Positions 20,221 through 46,017 of a stretch of 64,000 bases of DNA are shown here, piece after piece. Under the pieces are notes generated by a model. That model was not told the DNA's origin. It ran no database searches and saw only the letters and a list, made by a program, of their open reading frames with translations. The position numbers were made by a program, and so were the translations under genes. The DNA is from Brachybacterium aquaticum (GTDB taxonomy: Bacteria > Actinomycetota > Actinomycetes > Actinomycetales > Dermabacteraceae): assembly GCF_014204755.1 (NCBI RefSeq), contig NZ_JACHLZ010000001.1, positions 2,790,001 through 2,854,000 of the forward strand, written 5' to 3'. Positions within the stretch are counted from its first letter, which is position 1, and the number at the start of each line of letters is the position of its first letter.

Positions 20221-21573
20221 TCAGATGGCGGCGGGCCCGTCGGCCGACGGGATCTCGCCCGTGGGAGCGATGTCCCCCGTCGGCGCGATGTCGCCGAGCG
20301 CGAAGGAATCGTGCGCGGAGGAGTCGAGCGCGCCGAGCGCGGAGGTGTCGCCGTTGAAGACCATGAGCAGCACCACCGCGACGATCACGCCGAGCACGAG
20401 GGCCGCGCCGACGCCGAGACCGACCGCGATCATCGTGCTGCGGTCGGTGCCACGCTGCTGACCGGTGGCGGTGGCGGTGCCCGTCGCGGTGAAGGTCTGC
20501 GGGGTGGTGTGCGCGCTGGTGCGCTGTCCCTGCGGGCCCCCGCCGCCGTGCTGACCGGGCGGGACCGGTCCGCCGTGGGCCCACCGCTGGCCGGTCTGCG
20601 GGGACGGGGCCACGGTCGGGGACCCGGCGGTGAAGCCCTGCTGCACCTGCCCGGCGCGGATCGCCTCGAGCGAGGACGGCGCGACCAGGGGCGCGGGGCG
20701 CTCGGGCCGCTTCACGCCCGGGGCGTTCGGAGGCAGGGGGTCCAGGGTGTCCTGGAAGTCGAGCGGGGAGCCGTCGGCGAAGGTAAGCGGGTAGCCCTGC
20801 GGGACGCGGGGCAGGTCGCGGCGCACCGTGTCGGCGTCCTGGTAGCGGTCCTCCGGCTGGGCGGCGACGAGGCGGCGGATCACGGCGGAGAGCTTCGGCG
20901 TCACCCCGCGCAGGTGCTGGCTGAGCTCGTCGGGACGGAATGCGCCGTCGTGCAGCTTGATCGGCCCGTTCAGCGCCACGAGCGCCACCACCCCGGCGGC
21001 GTAGAGGTCGTGGGAGGGGGTGGGCTCGGCCATGGCGAACAGCTCCGGGGCCATGTAGCCGGGGGTGCCGTTGACCATGCCGACGTGGGTGAAGCGCACG
21101 TCCGTCTCGTGCACGGCGATACCGAAATCAGCCAGGCGGGAGACCGGATGAGCGCGCCCGCGCGGCTCGAACATGATGTTCGCGGGCTTCACGTCGCGGT
21201 GGATCCAGCCCTCCGAGTGCACGTGCGAGAGCCCGTCCAGCAGCTGGTCGAGGATGACCACGACCGCAGGCTCGGAGAGCTTGCCCCTCTTCTTCACCGC
21301 CGACTCGAGGGTGCCGCCGGAGACCAGCGGCATCGCGATCACGACGTGCTCGTCCTCGGCGCCCCAGCCGTAGGGGGTGAGCAGATGCGGATGGTCGAAG
21401 CTGACGCCCTTCTCGCGCACGAAGCGCATGAGGTCGGCCGAGTCGCGCTGGCGCAGGACCTTCGCCGCGCAGAGCTCCTTGGTCTTGGAGTCCCAGGCGC
21501 GCCAGACGGAGCCCGAACCGCCCTTTGCGATCAGGTCGATGAGCGCGAAGCGCCCGACAATAACGTCAGCCAT
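20221..21573 (-). CDS. Membrane-anchored serine/threonine protein kinase
   Basis: 450 residues. The N-terminal kinase domain has IAKGGSGSVWRAWD (glycine loop), the catalytic lysine in CAAKVLR, HRDVKPAN, DFG in LADFGIAVHET and APE in GYMAPELF. A Pro/Gln-rich linker follows. A single membrane segment (about 385-408, AVGLGVGAALVLGVIVAVVL) then leads to a short outside tail that repeats GDIAPTGDIAPTGEIPSADG, part of it encoded by a full dispersed palindrome. No PASTA repeats are present, so it is not PknB. It may signal to the PP2C-like protein at 10.5-11.2 kb. A TATGCT box sits 8 bp before the ATG. Confidence 0.92.
   Translation of the reverse strand: MADVIVGRFALIDLIAKGGSGSVWRAWDSKTKELCAAKVLRQRDSADLMRFVREKGVSFDHPHLLTPYGWGAEDEHVVIAMPLVSGGTLESAVKKRGKLSEPAVVVILDQLLDGLSHVHSEGWIHRDVKPANIMFEPRGRAHPVSRLADFGIAVHETDVRFTHVGMVNGTPGYMAPELFAMAEPTPSHDLYAAGVVALVALNGPIKLHDGAFRPDELSQHLRGVTPKLSAVIRRLVAAQPEDRYQDADTVRRDLPRVPQGYPLTFADGSPLDFQDTLDPLPPNAPGVKRPERPAPLVAPSSLEAIRAGQVQQGFTAGSPTVAPSPQTGQRWAHGGPVPPGQHGGGGPQGQRTSAHTTPQTFTATGTATATGQQRGTDRSTMIAVGLGVGAALVLGVIVAVVLLMVFNGDTSALGALDSSAHDSFALGDIAPTGDIAPTGEIPSADGPAAI
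20236..20251. repeat. Dispersed palindrome, full CCCGTCGGCCGACGGG (site 5)
   Basis: A perfect 16-mer in the last codons of the Ser/Thr kinase gene (IPSADGP); a half copy at 20211-20222 spans its stop codon. Confidence 0.85.
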
Positions 21574-22233: not shown

Positions 22234-23508
22234 ATGAGACCGGGTCGCACGCTGCTGCTCGCCGTCGACGGGCTGGACGAGCACGACGCCCGCACGTTCC
22301 TGCACGAGGACGGCGCCCGGTCCCATCCGCTGCTCTCCCGCGCTGCGATCGACGGTGCCATTCCCCTGCGGATCGGCTCGGGCGGTCCCTCCGAGCCGGC
22401 GCCGGCACTGGCGAGCCTGGTCACCGGCGCGTCCGTCGCCCACACCGGCGTCGCCACCGAGGCACCGTTCGTGCCCGAGCGTCCCGAGAGCCGCTCCACC
22501 TGGTACGCCCGCTCGATCACGACCTCGACCCTGTTCGACGAGGTCCGCGACGCCGGCGGCGTCACCGCCGCGCTGCAGTGGCCGGCCACCGCCGGGGCGG
22601 ACATCGCGCTGTGCCTGCCGCTGGTCGAGGACCTGCGCCACTACCGCAACCGCTGGGACATGGCCGAGCGCACCAGCTCCCCGCGCATGGTCGCCGAACA
22701 TCTGGCGCCGCGCCGCGACCTGGGGGTGCAGCTCAGCCAGGTCCCGCCGGACGACCTGGTCGCCGAGGTGGCGTGCGAGGCCCTGACCCGGGGCCGGGTC
22801 GATCTGCTGGCCGTGCGGCTGACGGGCCTGGGCCTGGTGCGCCGCACCGCAGGACTCGGCACCACCGCTGCGGAGCATGCACTGTTCGACGTCGCCGAGG
22901 CGATGCAGCAGATCCTCACCGCCTTCGCCCCGACGGACCGCGACCGGGTGGTGCTGGTCCCGGGGCGTCCGCTCGTGCCCGCCGCGCTGCTCGTGCACCC
23001 CAACGCCACCCTCGCCGCCGCGGGTCTCGTGCACACCGAGGGCACGAGGACCACTGATTTCCGGGCCCTCGTGTGGCCGGACGGTCCCCGAGGGGTGGCG
23101 CACGTGGGCCGCACGGAGCCGGAGTCGCTGCGCCAGGAAGTCCTCGGCGCCCTCGCCGAGATCGCGGCGCACACCCGGCTGCGCCTGCGCCCGGTGGACG
23201 ACGGGGTCGGGGCCACCGACGCGACCGACGTGATCGCGGTGCTCGAGGGCACCCCGGGCACGGTGTTCGGGCTGTCGGCGACGCATCGCCCGCTGGTGGA
23301 CGGCGAGGATCCGTACTACGCGGGTCCGCGCGCGGTGAGCGATCCGTCGGCGCCCTCGACCGCGCTCGCCCGGGGGCCGGGCCTGCCGGACGTGCCGATG
23401 GAGGGGTCCTGGGCGGATCTCGGCGTCACCCTCGCCGGAGCGCTCGGAGTGCACCTGCCGGGCGCGACGGCGGCGGGGATGTGCCCCGCCTCAGCACCGC
23501 TCGTGTGA
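22234..23508 (+). CDS. Type I phosphodiesterase/nucleotide pyrophosphatase-like protein
   Basis: 424 residues with the alkaline-phosphatase-like layout: LLLAVDGLDEHDARTFL at the N-terminus where the first metal-ligand aspartate sits, PALASLVTGASVAHTG where the nucleophile Ser/Thr is expected, and a late ATHRPLVDGEDPYYAGP near the His ligand. Overall it matches the alkaline phosphatase family of short actinobacterial proteins, but several metal ligands are not obvious, so activity is uncertain. GGAGGGGG precedes ATG 22234. The gene's last 17 bp are duplicated directly after its stop. Confidence 0.6.
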   Translation: MRPGRTLLLAVDGLDEHDARTFLHEDGARSHPLLSRAAIDGAIPLRIGSGGPSEPAPALASLVTGASVAHTGVATEAPFVPERPESRSTWYARSITTSTLFDEVRDAGGVTAALQWPATAGADIALCLPLVEDLRHYRNRWDMAERTSSPRMVAEHLAPRRDLGVQLSQVPPDDLVAEVACEALTRGRVDLLAVRLTGLGLVRRTAGLGTTAAEHALFDVAEAMQQILTAFAPTDRDRVVLVPGRPLVPAALLVHPNATLAAAGLVHTEGTRTTDFRALVWPDGPRGVAHVGRTEPESLRQEVLGALAEIAAHTRLRLRPVDDGVGATDATDVIAVLEGTPGTVFGLSATHRPLVDGEDPYYAGPRAVSDPSAPSTALARGPGLPDVPMEGSWADLGVTLAGALGVHLPGATAAGMCPASAPLV

Positions 23509-36034: not shown

Positions 36035-36387
36035 GCGCCGATCCGACGCCCCCCGTCCTGTCCTCGGAGGACGCCGAGTGGGCGCAAGAGCTCGCGAGCT
36101 CCTGGGTCGAGGTCTACAAGAAGTCGGCGACCACCCTCGCGCTGCTGCGGATCATCCGCGAGCACGGGCCGATCGCCGCCGCGGGTATCGCCCCGCTGGT
36201 GCTCGAGGCGACCGGGTGGACCCTCACCGAGAGCGGCCTCTACCGCACCCTGCGACGTCTCGCCGACTCCGGCGTGCTGAGCGCCCGGAAGGTCGACGTG
36301 GCCCGCACCGGGGCGAAGCGCCAGGACTTCGCGCTCACCCCGGTGGGGGCCGAGTACCTGCGCCGCATCGAGGCGGAGCTGATCTGA
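36031..36387 (+). CDS. PadR-type winged-helix regulator
   Basis: 118 residues: SATTLALLRIIREHGPIAAAGI, LEATGWTLTESGLYRTLRRLADSGVL (quoted in part) and a wing before the stop form a PadR/MarR-like winged helix. The short length and single C-terminal helix suit PadR subfamily 2. It overlaps the membrane-protein gene (ATGA). It probably binds the paired GGCAGTGCACC sites in the operon promoter. Confidence 0.75.
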   Translation: MSADPTPPVLSSEDAEWAQELASSWVEVYKKSATTLALLRIIREHGPIAAAGIAPLVLEATGWTLTESGLYRTLRRLADSGVLSARKVDVARTGAKRQDFALTPVGAEYLRRIEAELI

Positions 36388-36399
36388 GGATCTCCCGCC

Positions 36400-37578
36400 T
36401 CACCGGTCCCGGAACACGACCAGGCGCTGCACCAGGTAGCTGAGCACGAACAGCAGCAGGTCGGCGGTCAGCTTCGCGACCAGCAGCGACTCTCCGAGGG
36501 CGAGCAGTGCGTCGACGACCAGCACGCCGCCGGCGAGCACCCCGGCGGCGAGCGCCGCGTAGCGCAGCAGCGAGCGCCCCAGCGGGACGCGCCGGCCCTC
36601 CCGGAACACGAGGTGCCGATTGGCGGTGAAGTTCCCGGCTGCGCTCAGGACGCGGGCGAGGACGAGGGCGAGCCAGGCCGGCGCGCCGAGCGCCGCCAGA
36701 CCCAGGAACAGTGCGGTGTCCACGGCGAAGGAGCCCAGGCCTGTGGCCGCGAAGGCCAGCACGGGGCCCAGCACGCGCCCCGAGTCCCGCAGCGGCCGGA
36801 AGTGGCTGCTCGCGTTGTCCTCGATGTACACGGTCGAGATCGGCACCTGGTGCAGGGCGATCCCGGCGCGGGCCGCGGCGACCAGCTGGACGTACTCGTA
36901 CTCGTAGCGGTCCCCCGGCAGCGTGGTGGACCACGCCAGCAGGCTCGACGGCACCCCGCGCAGCCCCGTCTGGGTGTCCTCGAGGCGCACCCCCGACACC
37001 GCCCGGAAGGCGGCGGCGCTCACGGCGTTGCCGAGCCGGGAGCGCAGCGGGACCGCTCCACGGTCCGCGGTGCGGACGCCGAGCACGATCGCCGGATCCG
37101 CTCCGGCGGCGGTGCGGGCGTCCAGGACCTCGCGCACCTGCAGCACATCGGCGAGGCGGTGCTGGCCGTCGGCATCGGCCGTGACCACGCCCGCCCCGGG
37201 GAACCGGGAGGCGACCAGTGAGAATCCCCGGCGCAGCGCGGCCCCCTTGCCCTGGTTCACCGGGAGGTGGAGCACCACGGCGCCGAGCAGCTCGCAGCGG
37301 TCGAAGGTGACGGCGGACCGCTCGGGCGAGCCGTCGTCGACGATCACGGTCCCGACGCCGGCCGTGCGGAGCTCCCGGACCAGGTCCACCAGCTCAGGGC
37401 CCGGGTCCAGAGCGGGTATCAGCACCACGGCGCCGCCGGCGCGGGAGGCGGTCGCACCCCCGGGCACGGGGATGGCGGAGGCGCCAGGGACGACAGGGGC
37501 GGCGGGAGCGGCGGGAGCGGACTCGGCGACAGCGGACTGGACGGGGCGGCGGGCAGGCAGCAGGCTCATCGCGATCAC
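36400..37578 (-). CDS. GT2 glycosyltransferase fused to a GtrA-like membrane domain
   Basis: 392 residues. Residues 45-260 are a family 2 glycosyltransferase with VVLIPALDPGPELVDLV, nucleotide site VDDGSPER and metal site TADADGQHRLADV (DxD). Residues 265-392 carry four membrane helices of the GtrA family, thought to flip polyprenyl-linked sugars. The fusion suggests transfer of a sugar to undecaprenyl phosphate and its delivery across the membrane for surface decoration. GTG 37578 overlaps the previous stop (GTGA); ATG 37569 is an alternative. Second gene of the leftward arm of the surface cassette. Confidence 0.85.
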   Translation of the reverse strand: MIAMSLLPARRPVQSAVAESAPAAPAAPVVPGASAIPVPGGATASRAGGAVVLIPALDPGPELVDLVRELRTAGVGTVIVDDGSPERSAVTFDRCELLGAVVLHLPVNQGKGAALRRGFSLVASRFPGAGVVTADADGQHRLADVLQVREVLDARTAAGADPAIVLGVRTADRGAVPLRSRLGNAVSAAAFRAVSGVRLEDTQTGLRGVPSSLLAWSTTLPGDRYEYEYVQLVAAARAGIALHQVPISTVYIEDNASSHFRPLRDSGRVLGPVLAFAATGLGSFAVDTALFLGLAALGAPAWLALVLARVLSAAGNFTANRHLVFREGRRVPLGRSLLRYAALAAGVLAGGVLVVDALLALGESLLVAKLTADLLLFVLSYLVQRLVVFRDR

Positions 37579-38579
37579 CCGGCCACGTAGAGGATGTCGC
37601 TGGTGGCGCGCTCGCCGCCGTTGGACGGCTGGGTGACGACCTCCCCGTCGAAGATCATCACCGAGGAGCCGCCGCCGTCGAGGTTGTAGCCCGTGGTGCA
37701 GCCGAGGCCCGAGAGGATCTCGCCGAGCTCGGGCAGGGTCGCACCGCGTGAGTAGCCCTCGTCACGGCCGTCGACCACCAGGAGGACGAGGTGGTTGTCG
37801 CCGATCACGCCGATGGCGGTGCGGGGCTGGCTCCCCTGGATCGAATGGTTGCCGATGTTGGTGTCGACCTCGACGTCCTCGATGCCGTCCGGCACCGCGC
37901 CGTCGAGCAGCACGGCCGGGCCGAAGCTGAGTGTCTGCCACACGCCCTCGGCGAGCAGCTGCTCGGCGCCGGTGGCGGTCTCGTCGTACACCTCGATCCG
38001 ACCGTCGTCGTAGAACGCGAGGCCGTCGCGGGCGGGCTCGTCGCGGTAGATCACGCCGTTGCGGATCTCGATGCCGGTGTCGCGGAAGCCGTAATAGTCG
38101 CCGTTGATCGCGAGCACCGCATCGTGGGCGGCGGCGATCGCGCTGGGCTCCTCGGTGATGTTCTGCCCGAACTCGTCGTCGGCGAAGGCGGAGCGCAGCA
38201 CGGTGGCGTCGGTGACCTCGACCTCCGCCGCGTACCAGGTGATGGTGTCGCTGCCGGTGCCGGTGGAGGTGCTCGTCATCGTGATGGTGGTGGTCGAGGA
38301 GGTGTACCCGGTGGAGGTGACGCTGCCGTCCGTGGCGACTGCGGCGACCGACTCGGAGGTGCCGGCGGCCTGCTCCGCGGCGGAGATGCTGGAGACCTGG
38401 ACCTTCTCCCTGAGGAAGCGGTCGTAGGCCCAGGCGGCGGAGCCTCCGGTCCCGGCGAGGACGGCGACGCCGCCGCCGAGCAGGGCGCGCCGGGAGAGGC
38501 GCCGACCATGGCGGGACGGGGCGGGACCGTGTGGTGGGGCGGTCGTCGGGCGGGGCGGGGTGTCGGAGGTCGTGTCCAT
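37575..38579 (-). CDS. Phosphodiester glycosidase (NAGPA-domain) membrane-anchored protein
   Basis: 334 residues. Twin-arginine-like SRRALLGG leads into a membrane anchor, so the enzyme is outside the cell. A Thr/Ser-rich spacer is followed by the NAGPA domain: AINGDYYGFRDTGIEIRNGV, VLLVVDGRDEGYSRGATLPEL (quoted in part) and GYNLDGGGSSVMIFDG, all hallmarks. The family removes sugars held by phosphodiester links, as in the mammalian uncovering enzyme, and bacterial members act on phosphate-linked surface polymers. The gene is divergent from the DUF4956-VTC operon 180 bp away and coupled to the GT2-GtrA gene. Confidence 0.85.
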   Translation of the reverse strand: MDTTSDTPPRPTTAPPHGPAPSRHGRRLSRRALLGGGVAVLAGTGGSAAWAYDRFLREKVQVSSISAAEQAAGTSESVAAVATDGSVTSTGYTSSTTTITMTSTSTGTGSDTITWYAAEVEVTDATVLRSAFADDEFGQNITEEPSAIAAAHDAVLAINGDYYGFRDTGIEIRNGVIYRDEPARDGLAFYDDGRIEVYDETATGAEQLLAEGVWQTLSFGPAVLLDGAVPDGIEDVEVDTNIGNHSIQGSQPRTAIGVIGDNHLVLLVVDGRDEGYSRGATLPELGEILSGLGCTTGYNLDGGGSSVMIFDGEVVTQPSNGGERATSDILYVAG

Positions 38580-38758
38580 GGCCGGAAGCCTCGGCGGTGC
38601 CCCTGTGCCAGGGACGCGGGGCGAGCTGTGCAGGCTCTGTGTTCGCTCCCGTCCACCTGCCGTTCACCTCACATAGATCCGCGACAGGGCGGACATAGGG
38701 AATTCCTAGGGGCCGACCGGAGGCTTCGAGCATCACCCCCGATCCCGAGGAGCCCGGC

Positions 38759-39415
38759 ATGTCCTTGTCCACACTCTCCCTCTACGCCCTCGACCTGGTC
38801 GCCGCCGCGATCCTGGTGTTCGGCATCTACTGGCCCCGCCATCGGCGTCGCGACCTGGTGGTCGCGTTCCTCGGGATCCACGTGGGGGTGCTGGCCGTGG
38901 CGGCGCTGCTGGCCGGCTCCGCCGTCACCGCGGGCCTCGGGCTGGGTCTGTTCGGCGTGCTGTCCATCATCCGCCTGCGCTCGGACGAGCTGGCTCAGCA
39001 CGAGATCGCCTACTACTTCGCGGTGCTCGCGCTGGGACTGGTCTCCGGGCTCTCCACGAGCGCGACGCCGCTCTCGATCGGCTTCATCGTGCTGATCGTG
39101 GGGACCATGGCGATCGTGGATCATCCGCGGCTGCTCGGCGCCCACCGTCGCCAGCTGGTGGTGGTCGACCGGGCCCTGACCGACGAGACCGCCCTGCGCG
39201 CGCACCTCGAGGAGATGCTCGCAGCCGACGTCTCGGCCCTCTCCGTCCAGCGCCTGGACACCGTCTCCGACACCACGGTGGTGGACGTGCGCTTCCGGCT
39301 GCGCGAGCGCCGGCACGACCCCCTCTCCGCGGGGTCGGCCACGTCGGGCGCCGTCCCGCAGGAGGCGGTCGTCCCGCGTGCCGCCTCGGGCGCCGTCCCG
39401 GTGACGGTCCGATGA
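38759..39415 (+). CDS. DUF4956 membrane protein
   Basis: 218 residues with four membrane helices in the first 130 (YALDLVAAAILVFGIYW, LVVAFLGIHVGVLAVAALL) and a conserved loop GLFGVLSIIRLRSDELAQHE, the DUF4956 signature. A soluble C-terminal domain (VDHPRLLGAHRRQLVVVDRA) follows. DUF4956 proteins are consistently encoded next to VTC-domain proteins, as here (ATGA overlap), and may form the membrane part of a VTC complex. Function not established. Confidence 0.82.
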   Translation: MSLSTLSLYALDLVAAAILVFGIYWPRHRRRDLVVAFLGIHVGVLAVAALLAGSAVTAGLGLGLFGVLSIIRLRSDELAQHEIAYYFAVLALGLVSGLSTSATPLSIGFIVLIVGTMAIVDHPRLLGAHRRQLVVVDRALTDETALRAHLEEMLAADVSALSVQRLDTVSDTTVVDVRFRLRERRHDPLSAGSATSGAVPQEAVVPRAASGAVPVTVR

Positions 39416-40233
39416 GCGCGCACCGCGCGTCCGCCGCCCTTCCCAGGGCGGGCGGCCAGGAGATCAGCGGGCTCGGAGCGCTCCCCGGGATCGGCCTGGA
39501 GGAGATCACGGAGCGGGCAGGCCTGATGACCCGCGTGGACCGCAAGTACGTGCTCCCCCGCGAGGAGGTCGGCACCCTGCTCGCAGCAGCCGGCGGGGAC
39601 CTGCGGGTGCTCGAGATCGACGGTCGACGCCGCTTCTCCTACCGCTCCCTCTACTACGACACGCCCGACCTCACCGCCTACCGGGCCGCCGCGACCGGTC
39701 GCCGCCGGCGCTGGAAGGTGCGCCGCCGGGACTACCTCGACACGGGCACGTCGTTCCTCGAGGTCAAGACCCGCACCGGTCGCGGCGAATCCGCCAAGCT
39801 GCGGCTGCCGCTCCCGGCCGACGGGAGCGGGGCGGGCCCGGCCGCCGGGCGCCCCCTGTCCGGGGCGGGGCTCGAGCACGTGCGCACCACCCTGCTGGAC
39901 GCCGGATGCGCCGCCCCCGCGCAGCCGCTGGTGCCGGTGCTCGCCACCACCTACGCGCGCACCACTGTGCTGATCGCCGCCGAGGACGCCCGCCTCACCC
40001 TCGACGACTCGCTGTCCTGGATCGCCGCCGACGGACAGATGCTGCACCTGGACGGCGAGGTGGTGGTCGAGACCAAGGCCGGCACGCGCCCGGGCCGCGT
40101 GGACCGGGCGCTGTGGCGGGCGGGCCACCGCCCGCAGCGGCTCTCGAAGTACGCCACCGGCCTCGCACTCCTGGACGACTCCCTGTCCGCGAACCGCTGG
40201 CACCGCACCCTGCGCGACCTCCCGGTCGCCTGA
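39412..40233 (+). CDS. VTC-domain protein (polyphosphate polymerase-like)
   Basis: 273 residues; a CYTH-like tunnel fold that in yeast Vtc4 makes polyphosphate from ATP. The basic and acidic tunnel residues are visible: MTRVDRKYVLP, YRSLYYDTPDLTAYR, RRRRWKVRRRDY, FLEVKTRTGRGESAKL, VVETKAGTRPGRVDRALW and RLSKYATGLALL. No SPX domain or membrane segment is present, so it probably works with the DUF4956 membrane protein encoded just before it. The product could be polyphosphate or another phosphoanhydride polymer; in this surface cassette the latter deserves attention. Confidence 0.88.
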   Translation: MSAHRASAALPRAGGQEISGLGALPGIGLEEITERAGLMTRVDRKYVLPREEVGTLLAAAGGDLRVLEIDGRRRFSYRSLYYDTPDLTAYRAAATGRRRRWKVRRRDYLDTGTSFLEVKTRTGRGESAKLRLPLPADGSGAGPAAGRPLSGAGLEHVRTTLLDAGCAAPAQPLVPVLATTYARTTVLIAAEDARLTLDDSLSWIAADGQMLHLDGEVVVETKAGTRPGRVDRALWRAGHRPQRLSKYATGLALLDDSLSANRWHRTLRDLPVA

Positions 40234-40336
40234 TCCACAGCTCCGCCCTCCCCCGGACATGGGCCGCGCACAGCGGTCCCCGGGAGGGTGGAACCGTCAC
40301 CCCATCACCACATCACCCCTTCGAGGAAGGCATGCC

Positions 40337-41758
40337 ATGACCCCCACCACCGCTCCCGACTCCCCCACCGGCGGCCGCCGGTCCGCCCGCTCCCGCATGC
40401 GCCGCTGGTCGGCCGCGGCCGTCGCCGGCACGGCCGCCCTGGCCCTGGCCGCATGCGGGGCCGCCACCGCCGTCACCGGTGTCACCGACTCGGGCTCCTC
40501 GACCAGCTCCGGCTCCTCGGCGCAGGTCGCCGAGACCGCCTCGGTCACCAACGACCTGCTCTCCAGCCTCGACCTCACCACTCTCGACACCCATCTCGAC
40601 GAGGACGAACTGAGCTGGGACGCCGCCGATGAGCAGACCATCACGCTGGACGACACCGGATCGAGCTCCACCTCTTCCGCGGTCACCGTCGAGGACGGCG
40701 TCGTCACGATCACCGCCGGCGGCGTGTACCGGGTCTCCGGCGAGCTCACCGACGGACAGCTGGTGATCTCCGCTCCCGACGACGAGACCGTCACCGTGAT
40801 CCTCGACGACGCCTCGATCACCAGCACCACCGGCCCCGGCATCGCCGTGACCAGCGCCGACGAGGTCACCCTGGTCCTCGAGGACGGGACCTCAAACTCG
40901 GTCGCCGATGGCACCGACTACGAGGTCGCCGACGACTCGACACCGGTCGCGGCGATCGCCTCCGCGTCCGACCTCACGATCGCCGGCACCGGCGCCCTCA
41001 CGGTCACCGGCAGCACGAATGACGGCATCTCCACCCGCGACGGGCTCGCGATCACCGGCGGGGACATCACCGTCACCGCCGTGGACGACGCGCTGCGCGG
41101 GAAGGACTACCTCTCCATCAGCGACGGCACCTTCGACCTGACCAGCGGCGGAGACGCCCTGAAGTCCGACAACTACGAGGACGAGGACCGCGGCTGGGTG
41201 CTCGTGACCGGCGGGGAGTTCACGATCCATGCCGGGGACGACGGGATCGACGCCGAGCAGGCCGTCCAGATCACCGGCGGCACCGTGACCATCGAGGAGT
41301 CCGTCGAGGGCATCGAGGCGCAGGACGTCATGATCGAGGGCGGCACCGTCTCGATCACCGCCTCCGACGACGGCATCAACGCCACCGCCGCCACCACCGC
41401 CGAGGAGGCGGCCGCGGAGGAGAGCGCGACCGACACCGCCACCGCGGACGGCGGCATGGGCGGTGGCGGCGAGACCGACGACGGCTCGTGGCTCTCGATC
41501 AGCGGCGGCACCGTCACCGTCGTCGCCGACGTCGACGGGCTGGACTCCAACGGCACCGTCTCCCTGACCGGCGGGGAGGTGACGATCACCAGCGCCGCGA
41601 ACGGCGGCGACTCCCCGGTGGACGCCAACGGCGAGATCACCCTGGACGGCACCGTGCTCACGGCCAACGGCACCGAGATCTCCTCCGCGGACGAGCTCGG
41701 CGGAGGCATGGGCGGCTCCGGCCAGGGCAGCCCCGGCGGCCAGGCCCCGGGACGGTGA
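40337..41758 (+). CDS. Carbohydrate-binding-domain (DUF4353) lipoprotein
   Basis: 473 residues. Lipobox LALAACG (Cys near 38) makes it a surface lipoprotein. From about residue 115 onward it is a parallel beta-helix of repeated turns with the pattern hhhTGGxhxhxAxDDGI (for example ITVTAVDDALRGKDYLSISDGTF, quoted in part; FTIHAGDDGIDAEQAVQITGG), typical of DUF4353 proteins that go with CotH spore-coat-kinase-like and VTC genes. The DD residues of each turn could bind calcium. The tail is GGMGGSGQGSPGG. AGGAAGG precedes ATG 40337. Third gene of the rightward operon; no cotH is present here. Confidence 0.85.
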   Translation: MTPTTAPDSPTGGRRSARSRMRRWSAAAVAGTAALALAACGAATAVTGVTDSGSSTSSGSSAQVAETASVTNDLLSSLDLTTLDTHLDEDELSWDAADEQTITLDDTGSSSTSSAVTVEDGVVTITAGGVYRVSGELTDGQLVISAPDDETVTVILDDASITSTTGPGIAVTSADEVTLVLEDGTSNSVADGTDYEVADDSTPVAAIASASDLTIAGTGALTVTGSTNDGISTRDGLAITGGDITVTAVDDALRGKDYLSISDGTFDLTSGGDALKSDNYEDEDRGWVLVTGGEFTIHAGDDGIDAEQAVQITGGTVTIEESVEGIEAQDVMIEGGTVSITASDDGINATAATTAEEAAAEESATDTATADGGMGGGGETDDGSWLSISGGTVTVVADVDGLDSNGTVSLTGGEVTITSAANGGDSPVDANGEITLDGTVLTANGTEISSADELGGGMGGSGQGSPGGQAPGR

Positions 41759-41779
41759 CCGGGACGGCCGGGCTCGGGA

Positions 41780-42295
41780 TCAGCTGGGCTCGGGCAGGCC
41801 GAGGACGTACGCGGCCTGGGCGAGATGCTGGATCGCGTCGTCGAGGATGCTGATCAGGCGGGCACCGCGGGTGACGGGCGGGTCCCAGGAGTCGTCGACC
41901 ACGTCGCCGAGCGCGGCGGCGTCGAGGGTGTCGAGGTAGGCATCGAAGGCGTCGAGCGTCGCGTCGACGTAGTCGGCCAGCGCGTCGCCGTCCTCCACCA
42001 CGATGGCGCGGGCCTCCTCGGAGGAGTGGCCGTAGCCGACGGCCGAGCCCGGCTCGCCGAGGCCGAGACGGCCGGCCTCGTCGCGGGTGCGCCACACCTC
42101 CTCCCCGCCGGTGAGCGGCGCGAGCTGGGCGTCGATCTCCCGGCCGGTGTGCCACAGCAGCCAGGCCACGGAGTTGTCGTGCCCGGCGGGGTGGGCGTTG
42201 AGGGTCTCGGGGACCAATCGTCTGCGCAGGGCGGAGAGGGTGTGGCGAGGTCGGGAGGCGAGGTCGCGGAGCAGTTCGAGAGCGTCCATGGCCAT
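41780..42295 (-). CDS. DinB/mycothiol-dependent transferase-like protein (DUF664)
   Basis: 171-residue four-helix bundle. SVAWLLWHTGREIDAQL supplies the first metal-binding His, and ISILDDAIQHLAQAAYVLGL the C-terminal His; the third ligand is less obvious. The family in actinobacteria includes mycothiol S-transferases and maleylpyruvate isomerase relatives, cytoplasmic enzymes of detoxification. Substrate unknown. The ATG at 42295 is followed two codons later by another ATG (42289). Confidence 0.8.
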   Translation of the reverse strand: MAMDALELLRDLASRPRHTLSALRRRLVPETLNAHPAGHDNSVAWLLWHTGREIDAQLAPLTGGEEVWRTRDEAGRLGLGEPGSAVGYGHSSEEARAIVVEDGDALADYVDATLDAFDAYLDTLDAAALGDVVDDSWDPPVTRGARLISILDDAIQHLAQAAYVLGLPEPS

Positions 42296-42861: not shown

Positions 42862-43782
42862 TCAGGACGCGGCGGCCGCCGCCCCGGCGCGCAGCACGCG
42901 CAGGTCGCCCTTGCCCGAGCGGGCGTGGACCTCGAGGGTCCGCTCCGCGGCGCCGGCCCCGTCGGCCGGGGTGAGGCGCACGTCCTGCTCGCCGAGGCCG
43001 GTCGCGAGATCGAGGTGGACCGCGGTGCCGGCGGCGACGCGAAGCTCCACGTCGCCGAGGCCGCTGCGGGCGGTGAGGCTGCCGCTGCGGGCCTCGCGCA
43101 CGGTCACGCCGCCCACGCCGGCCGACAGGGTCGCGGTGCCCTCGAGGCGGTCCAGTCGCAGGTCACCGGTGCCCGTGGTGGCATGGACCTGTCCGGTCGC
43201 CTCGCCGAGGGTGACATCGCCGGTGCCAGTGGTCAGGCGGGTGGACTCCTCCGCCGCGTTGCGGACGTGCAGGTCGCCGGTGCCGGTGCGGGCCTCGAGC
43301 CGGGCGAGGGACCCCGTGATCTCGAGGTCGCCGACGCCGTCGGAGACGACCACGCGCGATCCGGCGGGCAGCACCACGCGGATCTCGAGCCCGCCGAGGA
43401 GCCCCTCGACGCCGCGCACGGCGGAGCGGAAGGACTCGGCGAGCCGGTCGGTGAAGGGCAGGCTCCCGCCGCGACCGCGGACGCTGAACAGGTCCCCGAG
43501 ACCCACGCCGACGCGGTGGGCCTCGTCGGCCGGGGCGTCGACGGTGAGGCGTTCGGCGTCGAAGCGGACCCGCATGCGGGTGGCGAGCTGGGCACCGGCC
43601 TCGCCGCGCGGGATCAGCTCGACGCCCACGCGGGTGCCGTGCTCGGCGCGCACGGTGATCGTGCCGCGGAGGTTCTGGATGTTCGCGTCGATGGAGCCGG
43701 CGGCGATGAACTCGTGGCGGATGGGATCGGGGGTGGGCTCGGGGTCGGGCGAGCCGGTGGGCGGGGTGTGCGGCGAGGTCAT
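42862..43782 (-). CDS. DUF4097-family beta-repeat protein
   Basis: 306 residues. From residue 25 to the end it is made of short beta strands with alternating GxGDLxhxxh units (LEARTGTGDLHVRNA, LTTGTGDVTLGEATGQVHATTGTGDLRL, quoted in part), the DUF4097 beta-helix or adhesin-like fold. No signal peptide is seen. It is encoded 33 bp after a ribbon-helix-helix protein in the same direction, a frequent actinobacterial pairing in which the HTH/RHH protein probably regulates the operon. Function unknown. Confidence 0.8.
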   Translation of the reverse strand: MTSPHTPPTGSPDPEPTPDPIRHEFIAAGSIDANIQNLRGTITVRAEHGTRVGVELIPRGEAGAQLATRMRVRFDAERLTVDAPADEAHRVGVGLGDLFSVRGRGGSLPFTDRLAESFRSAVRGVEGLLGGLEIRVVLPAGSRVVVSDGVGDLEITGSLARLEARTGTGDLHVRNAAEESTRLTTGTGDVTLGEATGQVHATTGTGDLRLDRLEGTATLSAGVGGVTVREARSGSLTARSGLGDVELRVAAGTAVHLDLATGLGEQDVRLTPADGAGAAERTLEVHARSGKGDLRVLRAGAAAAAS

Positions 43783-43815
43783 CGCGGTCTCCTGGAAGCG
43801 GGTGCGGGCGGCGGC

Positions 43816-44418
43816 TCAGACGAACCAGCCGCTGGTGCGGCCGGTGCTGCGCGGGGCGGTGGAGGCGGGAGGGACGGGCTGCGCCTGCTGCTCCTGGGCA
43901 TCGAGGTGCGTGGTCAGCGCCCGGACGAGGTACGTGTTCAGGCTCAGCTGCTCGCGCTCGGCGGCCTGCTCGAGGCGGGACTTCAGTGCCTGGGGCGGAC
44001 GGAAGGTGACGCGGGCGGCGCCGCTTCCTGTGTCCTCCGCGTCCTCTGGTGCTTCGGGCGGCCGCGGCGGGGTGGGCACCTCGGCCGCGACCGGCACCAC
44101 GGGCGTCACCGGGGCGCCGGGCACGAAGGGCGTGGCGGGCGCGGAAGGCGCCGCGGCGCCCCCGTCGGCCGACGCCTCGGGGGCGATGACGTGCACCGAG
44201 AGGTCCGTGCCGCGCAGGGCGAGGTCGACCCGGCCGGGGGCGAGCTCGGCCGAGACCTCGGCGGCGACCTGGCCCACGGCCTCCTGGATGGCGAGGCGCA
44301 GGGCGGGCTCGAGGCCCACGGACAGCAGCTCGGCGGTGCGGCGGGTGGTCTCGTCGCCGATCGCGGCGGAGGCGACGAGCTGCTCCTGCACGGGACGGGT
44401 GAGTGCTCTCAGATCCAT
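43816..44418 (-). CDS. Ribbon-helix-helix regulator with an N-terminal helical domain
   Basis: 200 residues. Residues 1-75 are helical (a segment reads LVASAAIGDETTRRTAELLSVG), residues 85-135 a Pro/Ala linker holding the dispersed palindrome (EASADGGAA), and residues 140-185 an RHH-type DNA-binding region: ARVTFRPPQALKSRLEQAAEREQLSLNTYLVRALTTHL (quoted in part). It is probably autoregulatory: a 21-bp palindrome TGACGTCA-CTA-TGACGTCA lies between its -35 and -10. DUF4097 gene follows. The ATG is 6 bp from the -10, so leaderless. Confidence 0.72.
   Translation of the reverse strand: MDLRALTRPVQEQLVASAAIGDETTRRTAELLSVGLEPALRLAIQEAVGQVAAEVSAELAPGRVDLALRGTDLSVHVIAPEASADGGAAAPSAPATPFVPGAPVTPVVPVAAEVPTPPRPPEAPEDAEDTGSGAARVTFRPPQALKSRLEQAAEREQLSLNTYLVRALTTHLDAQEQQAQPVPPASTAPRSTGRTSGWFV
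44164..44173. repeat. Dispersed palindrome core GTCGGCCGAC (site 6)
   Basis: Context CCCGTCGGCCGACGCC, in the linker of the ribbon-helix-helix protein, read as SADG on the minus strand. Confidence 0.7.
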
Positions 44419-44487: not shown

Positions 44488-46017
44488 ATGCTGGGCGTGA
44501 CCGAGGACTCCACGCACCCGTTCCCCTCCCCCGCTCCTGACAGCGCTCCCGCTCCCGACGGCGCCGCTGCTCCTGCGACCCCCCCCACGACCCCCGAGTC
44601 GTCCGAGCGCTCCGCCTTCTCCCGCGCCTCCGACGCGCTGCAGCGCCACCGCGCGCCCTCGGAGGTCTGGGGCGACGAGCGGGAGGCGGTGAGCCTGGCG
44701 CTGCGCTGGGCGGCCGAGCACACGACGGTCGCCACCGACCCCAAGACCACCGCCCGCAGCGCCGCCGAGCTGCAGGCGGCGGTGGGCGAGACCATCACCG
44801 AGGACGGCATCGGCGCGGCACGCGCGATGGAGCTGTTCGACAGCGTGCTGCTGCCCGCGACCCGCGCGGCGGAGGACCCGATGAACCTCGCCTACATCCC
44901 CGCCGCCCCCACCCGGGCCGCGGTCGCCTTCGACACCGTGGTCTCGGCCGCGAACGTGTTCGGCGGGGTGTGGGAGAACGGGGCCGGGGCGATCTTCGCC
45001 GAGAACCAGGTGCTGCGCTGGATCGCGGATCTGCTGGAGTGGCCGGCGGAGTCGGCCGGGGTGTTCGTCTCCGGCGGCACCATGGGCAACCTCTCGGCAC
45101 TGGCCACCGCCCGCGACCACGCCCTCCGCGCGCGGGGACGGCGTCCCGAGGGCGGGTGGGCGCTGGCCTGCGCCTCGACCGCGCACTCCTCGGTCGCCTC
45201 GGCCGCGCGGCTGCTGGACATGGACGTGGTGACCGTGCCGATCGACGACCGCGGCCACCTCACCGGCGAGGCGCTCGAGGGCGTGCTCGCCGCGGATCCG
45301 CGGATCTGCGCGGTGGTCGCCTCGGGCGGGACCACGAACGCGGGCATCGTCGACGACCTCGCCTCGGTGATCCCGGTGGCGCACCGCCACGGCGCCTGGG
45401 TGCACGTGGACGGCGCCTACGGCGGGGCGGCGCTCGCGGCCCCGAGCGCGAAGGGGCGCTTCGCGGGCATCCAGGAGGCGGACTCGTTCATCGTCGACCC
45501 GCACAAGTGGCTGTTCGCGCCGTACGACTGCTGCGCGCTGCTCTACCGGGACCCGCGCCCGGCCGCGGCCGCCCATTCCCAGCACGCCGCGTATCTGGAC
45601 TCGATCGACCGCGGGGAGTCCAACCCCTCGGACCTCGCCGCGCACCTCTCGCGCCGCACCCGGGGTCTGCCGCTGTGGTACTCGCTGGCCACGCACGGCA
45701 CCGCCGCGTACTCCGCAGCGGTGGAGCGGTGCCTCGCCTCCGCCCGCACGGTCGCCACCGCGATCGAGGCGTCCGAGCACCTGGAGCTGCTGCTGGAGCC
45801 GGAGCTGTCCGTGGTCGTGTTCCGCCGCCCGGGCTGGACACCGGTCGCCTATCGCCGCTGGTCGCAGCGCCTGGCGAAGGAGGGGACGCTGCTGTGCCTG
45901 CCCACGGCCTTCGCCGGGGAGATCGCGTTGCGCCTCGCCTTCGTGAACCCGCAGACAGATCCCGCGGCCGTGATCGACGTGCTCGAGCGGACGATGCACG
46001 CGGCCGACGGCAGCTGA
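44488..46017 (+). CDS. PLP-dependent group II decarboxylase
   Basis: 509-residue decarboxylase of the aromatic-L-amino-acid/diaminobutyrate/glutamate family. Core motifs: VFVSGGTMGNLSALATARDHA, substrate-side STAHSSVASAARLL, VHVDGAYGGAALAAP and the PLP lysine in FIVDPHKWLFAPYDCCALLY. The substrate (L-2,4-diaminobutyrate, aspartate, tyrosine or tryptophan) cannot be read from motifs. The first 45 residues are Pro/Ala-rich and poorly conserved, so a start further in is possible. Product would be an amine or beta-alanine made in the cytoplasm. Divergent from the RHH gene. Confidence 0.88.
   Translation: MLGVTEDSTHPFPSPAPDSAPAPDGAAAPATPPTTPESSERSAFSRASDALQRHRAPSEVWGDEREAVSLALRWAAEHTTVATDPKTTARSAAELQAAVGETITEDGIGAARAMELFDSVLLPATRAAEDPMNLAYIPAAPTRAAVAFDTVVSAANVFGGVWENGAGAIFAENQVLRWIADLLEWPAESAGVFVSGGTMGNLSALATARDHALRARGRRPEGGWALACASTAHSSVASAARLLDMDVVTVPIDDRGHLTGEALEGVLAADPRICAVVASGGTTNAGIVDDLASVIPVAHRHGAWVHVDGAYGGAALAAPSAKGRFAGIQEADSFIVDPHKWLFAPYDCCALLYRDPRPAAAAHSQHAAYLDSIDRGESNPSDLAAHLSRRTRGLPLWYSLATHGTAAYSAAVERCLASARTVATAIEASEHLELLLEPELSVVVFRRPGWTPVAYRRWSQRLAKEGTLLCLPTAFAGEIALRLAFVNPQTDPAAVIDVLERTMHAADGS

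What the first reader, a model, noticed from the sequence alone, without database searches (positions are those of the whole stretch)
36400..41758. Divergent surface cassette: GT2-GtrA and phosphodiester glycosidase facing DUF4956-VTC-DUF4353
Five genes in two coupled, divergent units combine a polyprenyl-sugar transferase/flippase fusion, an outside enzyme that cleaves sugar phosphodiesters, a four-helix DUF4956 protein, a complete VTC tunnel domain and a beta-helical lipoprotein. VTC proteins make polyphosphate in yeast, and DUF4956-VTC adjacency is common in bacteria with no agreed role. The added phosphodiester glycosidase and GT suggest a system that builds and trims a phosphate-linked surface polymer (inference). 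The cotH gene often seen in such clusters is missing.
Basis: partly seen in the sequence, partly recalled or inferred. Interest (0 to 1): 0.75.

Follow-up and report, generated by a model that had tools for sequence, protein, structure and literature searches.

The report
Five-gene phosphate–sugar surface cassette
Five neighbouring genes of a Brachybacterium-type bacterium form a recurring set that pairs an enzyme of the polyphosphate-making kind with enzymes of the kind that load and remove phosphate-linked sugars at the cell surface; related bacteria carry the set too, but what it makes is not yet known.

Summary
Two divergent units, NAGPA→GT2-GtrA and DUF4956→VTC→Cthe_2159 lipoprotein, face each other over 179 bp; the first two junctions overlap by 4 nt. 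NAGPA and GT2-GtrA are paired in 78 of 80 loci (two contigs end just after NAGPA) and recur beside DUF4956-VTC in four arrangements. In 297 genomes of the order, 40 of 40 with this NAGPA subfamily carry DUF4956, against 66 of 257 without it; in 21 of the 40 the two were not found within 20 kb. In a second set 77 of 80 carry both. The sugar arm thus looks like an optional branch that needs DUF4956-VTC. VTC keeps Vtc4-type tunnel residues, and basic residues at three of four polymerase/phosphatase positions, in 56 of 56 aligned relatives. DUF4956 is a remote MgtC relative. CotH is absent from this genome. A phosphate-bearing surface polymer fits but is unproven; published streptococcal mutants suit a regulatory rival about as well. 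New variant of a known, poorly understood cluster.

The parts
36400..37578 (-). GT2-GtrA: enzyme of the polyprenyl-phosphate monosaccharide synthase kind (GT2 domain plus GtrA/DPMS membrane domain), GTG start
   Evidence: Pfam GtrA_DPMS_TM 1.3e-13 and Glycos_transf_2 5.2e-7; only solved chain at E <= 0.001 is 5mlz, 2.1e-7; D-x-D-x-Q-H and DTQTGLR residues invariant in 12 rows, the middle x and G nearly so
37575..37578 (-). 4-nt overlap of NAGPA stop and GT start (GTGA)
   Evidence: read from sequence
37575..38579 (-). NAGPA-type phosphodiester glycosidase with an N-terminal signal or anchor segment (SRRALLGGG, Tat-like in this protein)
   Evidence: Pfam NAGPA 6.1e-34; solved relatives 6ozd, 3ohg and NAGPA chains such as 6pku; NGDYYGFR, NHSIQ..QPRT, VVDGR, N.DGGG residues invariant in 12 rows
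38580..38758 (.). 179-bp divergent intergenic region, presumed to hold both promoters
   Evidence: coordinates; no sigma-70 consensus match in 36200-42000, so the promoters are inferred
38759..39415 (+). DUF4956: MgtC-like integral membrane protein with a C-terminal E-H-E-E (ACT-like) domain
   Evidence: Pfam DUF4956 6.4e-58; AF2 mean pLDDT 84.3, pTM 0.65, five helices then E-H-E-E; hhalign to an MgtC profile 84.5-89.8%
39412..39415 (+). 4-nt overlap of DUF4956 stop and VTC start (ATGA)
   Evidence: read from sequence
39412..40233 (+). VTC tunnel protein of the polyphosphate-polymerase kind, without a hydrophobic membrane segment of its own
   Evidence: Pfam VTC 3.5e-23; profile hit to Vtc4 3g3q 3.5e-14; AF2 mean pLDDT 89.1, best fold match VTC complex 8i6v 5.5e-12; tunnel residues and hydropathy
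40259..41758 (+). Cthe_2159-type beta-helical carbohydrate-binding lipoprotein; lipobox Cys66; Ser/Thr-rich after the Cys; true start may lie downstream of the first ATG
   Evidence: Pfam Cthe_2159 1.1e-76; 4peu 7.4e-38; a simple lipobox pattern fits 41 of 41 and 31 of 34 homologues in two locus sets; the beta-helix fold is recalled

Best explanation
The five genes form one extracytoplasmic phosphate-sugar pathway in two arms. Arm 1 (DUF4956-VTC): the soluble VTC tunnel protein sits on the cytoplasmic face, held or controlled by the MgtC-like DUF4956 membrane protein, and makes polyphosphate from ATP (activity inferred from residues and fold; partnership inferred from joint occurrence in 87 of 87 loci and the 4-nt overlap). 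Arm 2 (GT2-GtrA and NAGPA): GT2-GtrA charges polyprenyl phosphate with one sugar on the inner face (inferred from its solved relative); outside, the tethered NAGPA enzyme, translated from the same coupled message, acts on a sugar-1-phosphodiester, most plausibly the prenyl-phosphate sugar itself or that sugar once it sits on a phosphate-bearing surface polymer. The Cthe_2159 lipoprotein binds the resulting surface glycan. Shown here: anatomy, intact signature residues, fixed NAGPA-GT pairing, and near-strict dependence of arm 2 on arm 1 at genome level. Inferred: all activities, topology, the substrate, and that the product is a phosphate-bearing surface polymer.
For: NAGPA and GT2-GtrA paired in 78 of 80 loci; in the 2 misses (L192, L203) the contig ends 104 and 395 bases after NAGPA. 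Loci with all five families in Microbacterium, Arthrobacter, Brachybacterium, Nocardioides, Virgisporangium and Micromonospora among others, in four arrangements. Order sample: 40 of 40 NAGPA-subfamily genomes carry DUF4956 versus 66 of 257 others (Fisher 4e-21; the same draw of 297 genomes is assumed for both calls). By genus: all 17 NAG+ genera lie among the 45 of 93 DUF4956+ genera (p 6e-7). Within the window's genus: 7 of 7 versus 4 of 12 (p 0.0065). In 21 of the 40 the two were not found within 20 kb: 7 lie over 250 kb apart on one contig, 14 on different contigs. Of 36 named NAG loci without DUF4956 in the locus, 33 genomes have it elsewhere. VTC tunnel residues R104, R106, K119, K129, R183, R194, E220, K222, K246 match Vtc4 and are invariant in 56 of 56 aligned relatives. 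No PPK1 match in this genome.
Against: No activity, substrate or polymer is shown. Three named genomes of 80 have the NAGPA subfamily but no DUF4956 match, two of them MAGs. A partial GT-subfamily match in one class genome (G221) also goes without DUF4956. Three PPK2 genes exist here, so VTC is not the only possible polyP source. Position 43, the fourth phosphatase/polymerase discriminator, is mostly acidic (D 43, E 8, C 5 of 56). In S. intermedius deletion of SIR_1592 (DUF4956 by gene order, my reading) raised Pel and lowered aggregation, whereas the strain without the polyP-polymerase gene SIR_1593 still aggregated and had Pel (PMC12345266, passages). DUF4956 is MgtC-like rather than Vtc1-like, and that paper describes Salmonella MgtC as acting on ATP synthase and phosphate control. 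Inverting GT2 enzymes should give beta-linked prenyl-phosphate sugars while human NAGPA cleaves alpha-linked ones (recalled), so the prenyl-phosphate sugar may not be the NAGPA substrate.
Confidence: 0.4

Rival explanations
1. DUF4956-VTC is a phosphate- or ATP-status controller (MgtC-like membrane regulator plus a tunnel protein that binds or makes short polyP) that tunes whichever surface polysaccharide machinery is present; NAGPA/GT2-GtrA is the machinery tuned here, Pel the one tuned in streptococci and bifidobacteria.
For: DUF4956 is a remote MgtC relative with a C-terminal ACT-like domain. In S. intermedius the SIR_1592 mutant made more Pel and aggregated less, and the polyP-polymerase mutant still aggregated. 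DUF4956-VTC sits beside different partners: pel and cotH (passages), CotH, NAGPA-GT, or neither. Genes that I read by eye as sensor kinases or response regulators (not scanned against a library) are near DUF4956-VTC in 38 of 88 loci (cluster c0) and near NAGPA in 15 and 13 of 80 (clusters c1, c2).
Against: Invariant Vtc4-type residues argue for an enzyme, not only a binder. A general controller does not by itself explain why this NAGPA subfamily never occurs without DUF4956 in 297 genomes.
Confidence: 0.33
2. The VTC protein is a tripolyphosphatase or other hydrolytic tunnel enzyme rather than a polymerase, and the locus recycles phosphate released from surface glycan turnover by NAGPA.
For: Tunnel enzymes share the same core; residue 43 keeps one acidic position in most relatives; the fold also matches ygiF and other tunnel enzymes, more weakly.
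Against: Three of four acidic-patch positions are basic in 56 of 56 relatives, as in Vtc4; best sequence and fold matches are Vtc4.
Confidence: 0.12
3. The two arms have unrelated jobs and are neighbours only because both are surface genes that travel together.
For: Many NAG-GT loci have DUF4956 elsewhere on the genome (33 of 80; 21 of 40 not within 20 kb); 66 genomes of the order sample have DUF4956 without this NAGPA.
Against: Co-occurrence is one-way and complete in the order sample, also in the 21 genomes where the two were not found close together; other NAGPA-family genes show only a mild association with DUF4956 (38 of 57 versus 152 of 328).
Confidence: 0.08

Closest known systems
pel-associated cotH-polyP polymerase-DUF4956 gene group of streptococci, clostridia and bifidobacteria (PMC7112168, PMC12345266; passages seen)
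   Same: DUF4956 next to a VTC-type polyphosphate polymerase in a surface-polysaccharide locus
   Different: No CotH in this genome; NAGPA, GT2-GtrA and a Cthe_2159 lipoprotein instead. No pel family appeared among the 20 window ORFs scanned with Pfam; the genome was not searched for pel
Yeast VTC complex (Vtc4 catalytic tunnel domain)
   Same: Tunnel fold and tunnel-centre residues
   Different: No Pfam match besides VTC, so no SPX domain found, and no hydrophobic segment in the chain; the neighbouring membrane protein is MgtC-like DUF4956
MgtC family (PF02308)
   Same: Membrane motif GIGFLGAGaIlR aligned with GLGLFGVLSIIRLR, followed by a small C-terminal domain
   Different: The window protein itself gives no PF02308 match at E <= 1
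Dolichol monophosphate mannose synthase 5mlz (Pyrococcus furiosus, organism recalled)
   Same: GT2 part followed by a GtrA-like membrane part
   Different: Sugar and lipid unknown; NCBIfam PpgS and AglJ cut-offs are far from met
Mammalian uncovering enzyme NAGPA and bacterial DUF2233 protein 3ohg
   Same: Phosphodiester glycosidase domain with conserved signature blocks
   Different: Substrate unknown; encoded as a fixed pair with GT2-GtrA
Cthe_2159 (4peu, 4phb; Clostridium thermocellum, organism recalled)
   Same: Family match over residues 134-356
   Different: Lipoprotein in a phosphate/sugar gene set; ligand unknown

Membership tests
VTC-type polyphosphate polymerase | VTC tunnel domain over full length | tested here: met
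   PF09359 positions 2-234 of 235, 82.8 bits, cut-off 23; fold match 8i6v 5.5e-12
VTC-type polyphosphate polymerase | Vtc4 tunnel residues (R264, R266, K281, R361, R373, E426, K458 equivalents) | tested here: met
   R104, R106, K119, R183, R194, E220, K246 in 56 of 56 rows; K45 in 55 of 56; 56 of the 88 VTC sequences found were aligned. R264, R266, E426 and K458 are named in passages of PMC9911596 and PMC4641920; the other Vtc4 numbers are recalled
VTC-type polyphosphate polymerase | basic residues in place of the acidic patch of tunnel phosphatases | tested here: inconclusive
   three of four positions basic in 56 of 56 (R41, K129, K222); the fourth is D/E/C (43/8/5); criterion from PMC4641920 passages; the matching of positions is mine, from the alignment
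VTC-type polyphosphate polymerase | polyP synthesis from ATP | not testable with these tools
   needs purified protein
MgtC family | PF02308 match over cut-off | tested here: not met
   window protein has no PF02308 match at E <= 1; 10 of 68 DUF4956 relatives match, best 4.5e-7; profile-profile 84.5-89.8%, one unrelated control 0.1%
NAGPA phosphodiester glycosidase | PF09992 domain with conserved signature blocks | tested here: met
   118.1 bits, cut-off 25; conserved blocks
NAGPA phosphodiester glycosidase | cleavage of a sugar-1-phosphodiester | not testable with these tools
   no assay
DPMS-like polyprenyl-phosphate sugar synthase | GT2 with DxD-type motif plus GtrA/DPMS membrane domain | tested here: met
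   the meaning of the motif is recalled
PpgS (polyprenyl-phospho-GalNAc synthase) equivalog | NCBIfam NF058614 cut-off of 370 bits | tested here: not met
   62.4 bits
cotH-polyP polymerase-DUF4956 pel accessory group | CotH kinase gene in the cluster | tested here: not met
   none in the window's genome; 16 of 50 genomes searched have one
cotH-polyP polymerase-DUF4956 pel accessory group | adjacent pel operon | not tested
   no family search for Pel proteins was run on the genome; none named among 20 window ORFs

The most novel reading that the evidence does not exclude
The cassette makes a surface polymer not yet described, in which polyphosphate (or a polyP-derived phosphate) made and delivered by DUF4956-VTC is joined to sugars supplied by prenyl phosphate, with the NAGPA enzyme working outside the cell as transferase or trimming enzyme on sugar-phosphate diesters.
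Probability: 0.15. Interest if true: 0.85.

Novelty: new variant of a known kind. Interest (0 to 1): 0.56.

Why it matters
Bacterial VTC-domain proteins are commonly named polyphosphate polymerases (recalled), yet my searches of the held library showed no settled bacterial role (listings; passages). A nearly strictly nested partner pair, a sugar-charging enzyme plus a phosphodiester glycosidase, gives a concrete, testable substrate hypothesis outside the Pel context. Hosts such as Microbacterium and Arthrobacter carry all five genes in one direction, and 34 of 50 genomes searched have no CotH match, so the CotH variable can be left out.

Tried and rejected
DUF4956 as a Vtc1-like channel: Foldseek gave 598 matches, none at E <= 0.001, and the profile search of solved chains only two hits at E 1.6 and 2; a channel role is not excluded, but the MgtC link is the better lead. 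Tat export of NAGPA as a family trait: my strict motif fits 15 of 80, any RR 71 of 80, so not claimed. CotH hidden elsewhere in the genome: absent. Further conserved cassette members: nine flanking proteins of six loci were scanned and differ (LysE, aldo/keto reductase, amine oxidase, epimerase, mycothiol transferase, Excalibur, GH43, two without match), and the commonest other cluster reaches 17 of 80 loci. Long antisense ORFs over DUF4956-VTC (cluster c1; window 39121-40260 minus): judged high-GC artefacts, not tested further. Sigma-70 promoters and terminators: none found. Literature: ten searches showed no paper on the five-gene set; one search listed 20 of 42 papers, and most subscription journals are not held, so absence from print is not shown.
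Full report
Place. The window is bases 2790001-2854000 of a 3.45-Mb single-contig genome. A same-genus genome (G019, contig of 3410111 bases) has the contig length of Brachybacterium sp. SGAir0954 (NZ_CP027295.1), so the window is taken as genus Brachybacterium; the species was not established.

Observation. Five ORFs fill the stated range. On the minus strand NAGPA (334 aa) is followed by GT2-GtrA (392 aa) with a 4-nt GTGA overlap; on the plus strand DUF4956 (218 aa) is followed by VTC (273 aa) with a 4-nt ATGA overlap and, after 25 bp, by a Cthe_2159 lipoprotein (499 aa from the first ATG). The two units are divergent across 179 bp. No sigma-70 or terminator pattern was found, which says little in DNA of about 73% GC.

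What each part is. GT2-GtrA: GtrA_DPMS_TM and GT2 domains; the only solved protein at E <= 0.001 is a dolichol monophosphate mannose synthase (5mlz), so it most likely loads a sugar onto prenyl phosphate; cut-offs for PpgS and AglJ are not met. NAGPA: full domain, with signature blocks shared with solved relatives including NAGPA itself. DUF4956: AF2 model with five helices and a C-terminal E-H-E-E domain (mean pLDDT 84.3, pTM 0.65). The model had no significant solved match. 10 of 68 relatives match Pfam MgtC (best 4.5e-7), though the window protein does not; comparison with a profile of 29 MgtC proteins gives 84.5-89.8% probability (one unrelated control, 0.1%). The S. intermedius paper already describes SIR_1592 as an MgtC-ACT membrane protein (PMC12345266, passages), so that link is not new. 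The DUF4956 alignment held 68 rows, the window's own protein and 67 of the 89 hits. VTC: best profile match Vtc4 (3.5e-14), best fold match the VTC complex (5.5e-12). In the 56 VTC sequences that I aligned, of 88 found, the tunnel residues are invariant but for K45 (55 of 56); of the four positions that PMC4641920 uses to separate tunnel phosphatases (acidic) from Vtc4 (basic), three are basic in 56 of 56 and the fourth is D, E or C. Cthe_2159: 7.4e-38 to 4peu; a simple lipobox pattern fits 41 of 41 and 31 of 34 homologues, with about one third Ser/Thr in the 60 residues after the Cys.

Conservation, DUF4956-centred. DUF4956 matches 18 of 47 family genomes and 65 of 393 class genomes. I fetched 88 loci around these hits; two class hits below the Pfam cut-off were not fetched. 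VTC is in the locus in all 87 loci in which my profile finds DUF4956; the 88th (L066) rested on a hit below the cut-off. NAGPA and GT2-GtrA are both present in the same 12 loci, all 12 with Cthe_2159, against 33 of 88 overall (a 13th, weak GT2 hit in L130 was set aside). A gene cluster (c4) that I identified as CotH by eye, and whose profile finds a Pfam-confirmed CotH in L140, is in 14 loci, mostly V-D-CotH, none of them with NAGPA.

Conservation, NAGPA-centred. GT2-GtrA lies just downstream of NAGPA in 78 of 80 (hits under 150 bits ignored); in L192 and L203 the contig ends 104 and 395 bases after NAGPA. DUF4956 is in the locus in 44, VTC in 43, Cthe_2159 in 41, CotH in 5. Arrangements over both sets: [C V D] divergent from [NAG GT] (the window), NAG-GT-D-V-C in one direction (most), D-V divergent from NAG-GT-C (Nocardioides), and D-V-C before NAG-GT. 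The sets share genomes (for example G019 and L138, G309 and L168). Of the 36 loci without DUF4956, 33 genomes have it elsewhere (two of them 12-15 kb away on the same contig); those of L162, L164 (both MAGs) and L186 show none.

Dependence. In 297 genomes of the order, 40 hold this NAGPA subfamily (limit 1e-40, weakest hit 2.2e-124, so no borderline cases), and all 40 hold DUF4956, against 66 of 257 others (Fisher 4e-21); I take the two calls to have drawn the same genomes, as the listed labels agree. Species are not independent, so I repeated it by genus (17 of 17 NAG+ genera among 45 DUF4956+ of 93, p 6e-7) and inside the window's genus (7 of 7 versus 4 of 12, p 0.0065). The profile was built from loci chosen for lying near DUF4956, which could favour linkage; but in 21 of the 40 genomes the two were not found within 20 kb (7 over 250 kb apart on one contig, 14 on different contigs, where fragmentation could hide linkage), and none lacks DUF4956. 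In the class sample the GT profile hits 9 of 393 genomes, 8 with DUF4956; the ninth (G221, a partial match, not counted as a carrier) has none. One carrier (G416) has the pair far from its DUF4956. Other NAGPA-family genes are only mildly associated (38 of 57 versus 152 of 328, odds 2.3; lists compared by eye).

Mechanism. The simplest pathway consistent with this is: VTC makes polyP from ATP at a DUF4956 site in the membrane; GT2-GtrA makes prenyl-phosphate sugar; NAGPA cleaves or transfers a sugar from a phosphodiester outside; the lipoprotein binds the product. Only anatomy, motif integrity and co-dependence are shown. The genome has no PPK1 match but three PPK2. The main rival is regulation: in S. 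intermedius deletion of SIR_1592 raised Pel yet lowered aggregation and deletion of the CotH gene SIR_1594 lowered both, while deletion of the polyP-polymerase gene SIR_1593 left Pel and aggregation present (PMC12345266, passages); that SIR_1592 is DUF4956 is my reading from the gene group named in PMC7112168.

Known or new. A cotH, polyP polymerase, DUF4956 and DUF4832 group next to pel is published (PMC7112168, passages); VTC-domain and CotH genes also share a C. perfringens locus (PMC2879425, passages). The ten literature searches showed no description of NAGPA/GT2-GtrA as a partner (listings, the last listing 20 of 42). I file it as a new variant of a known kind, with no settled function.

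Noticed in passing
whole genome G000: No PPK1 (PF02503) but three PPK2 genes (C1:2543567, 488627, 692708) in a genome that has a VTC protein.
   Followed up: partly
L065, L104, L112, L124-L132, L134, L135: A second arrangement, mostly VTC-DUF4956-CotH, with divergent DUF4956 sequences (17-21% identity to the window's among those aligned, L104 apart), never with NAGPA in the 88 loci.
   Followed up: partly
L051:8627-11732: Two DUF4956-VTC pairs head to head in one same-genus genome (G001), one with a Cthe_2159 gene.
   Followed up: no
L140, L152: NAGPA-GT2-GtrA directly followed by a CotH gene in Homoserinibacter and Protaetiibacter (CotH of L140 confirmed by Pfam), so CotH may plug into the sugar arm.
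   Followed up: partly
locus maps: Genes read by eye as sensor kinases or response regulators lie near DUF4956-VTC in 38 of 88 loci and near NAGPA in 15 and 13 of 80.
   Followed up: no
39121-40260 (-): Long antisense ORF over DUF4956-VTC; similar antisense ORFs were called in 23 of 88 loci (cluster c1). Likely a high-GC artefact.
   Followed up: no
22234-23508 (+): Weak type I phosphodiesterase match (PF01663, just below cut-off) near a Ser/Thr protein kinase gene at 20221-21573.
   Followed up: no
42862-44418 (-): DUF4097 'toastrack' protein with a neighbouring 200-aa protein without Pfam match, next to a pyridoxal decarboxylase gene at 44488-46017 (+).
   Followed up: no
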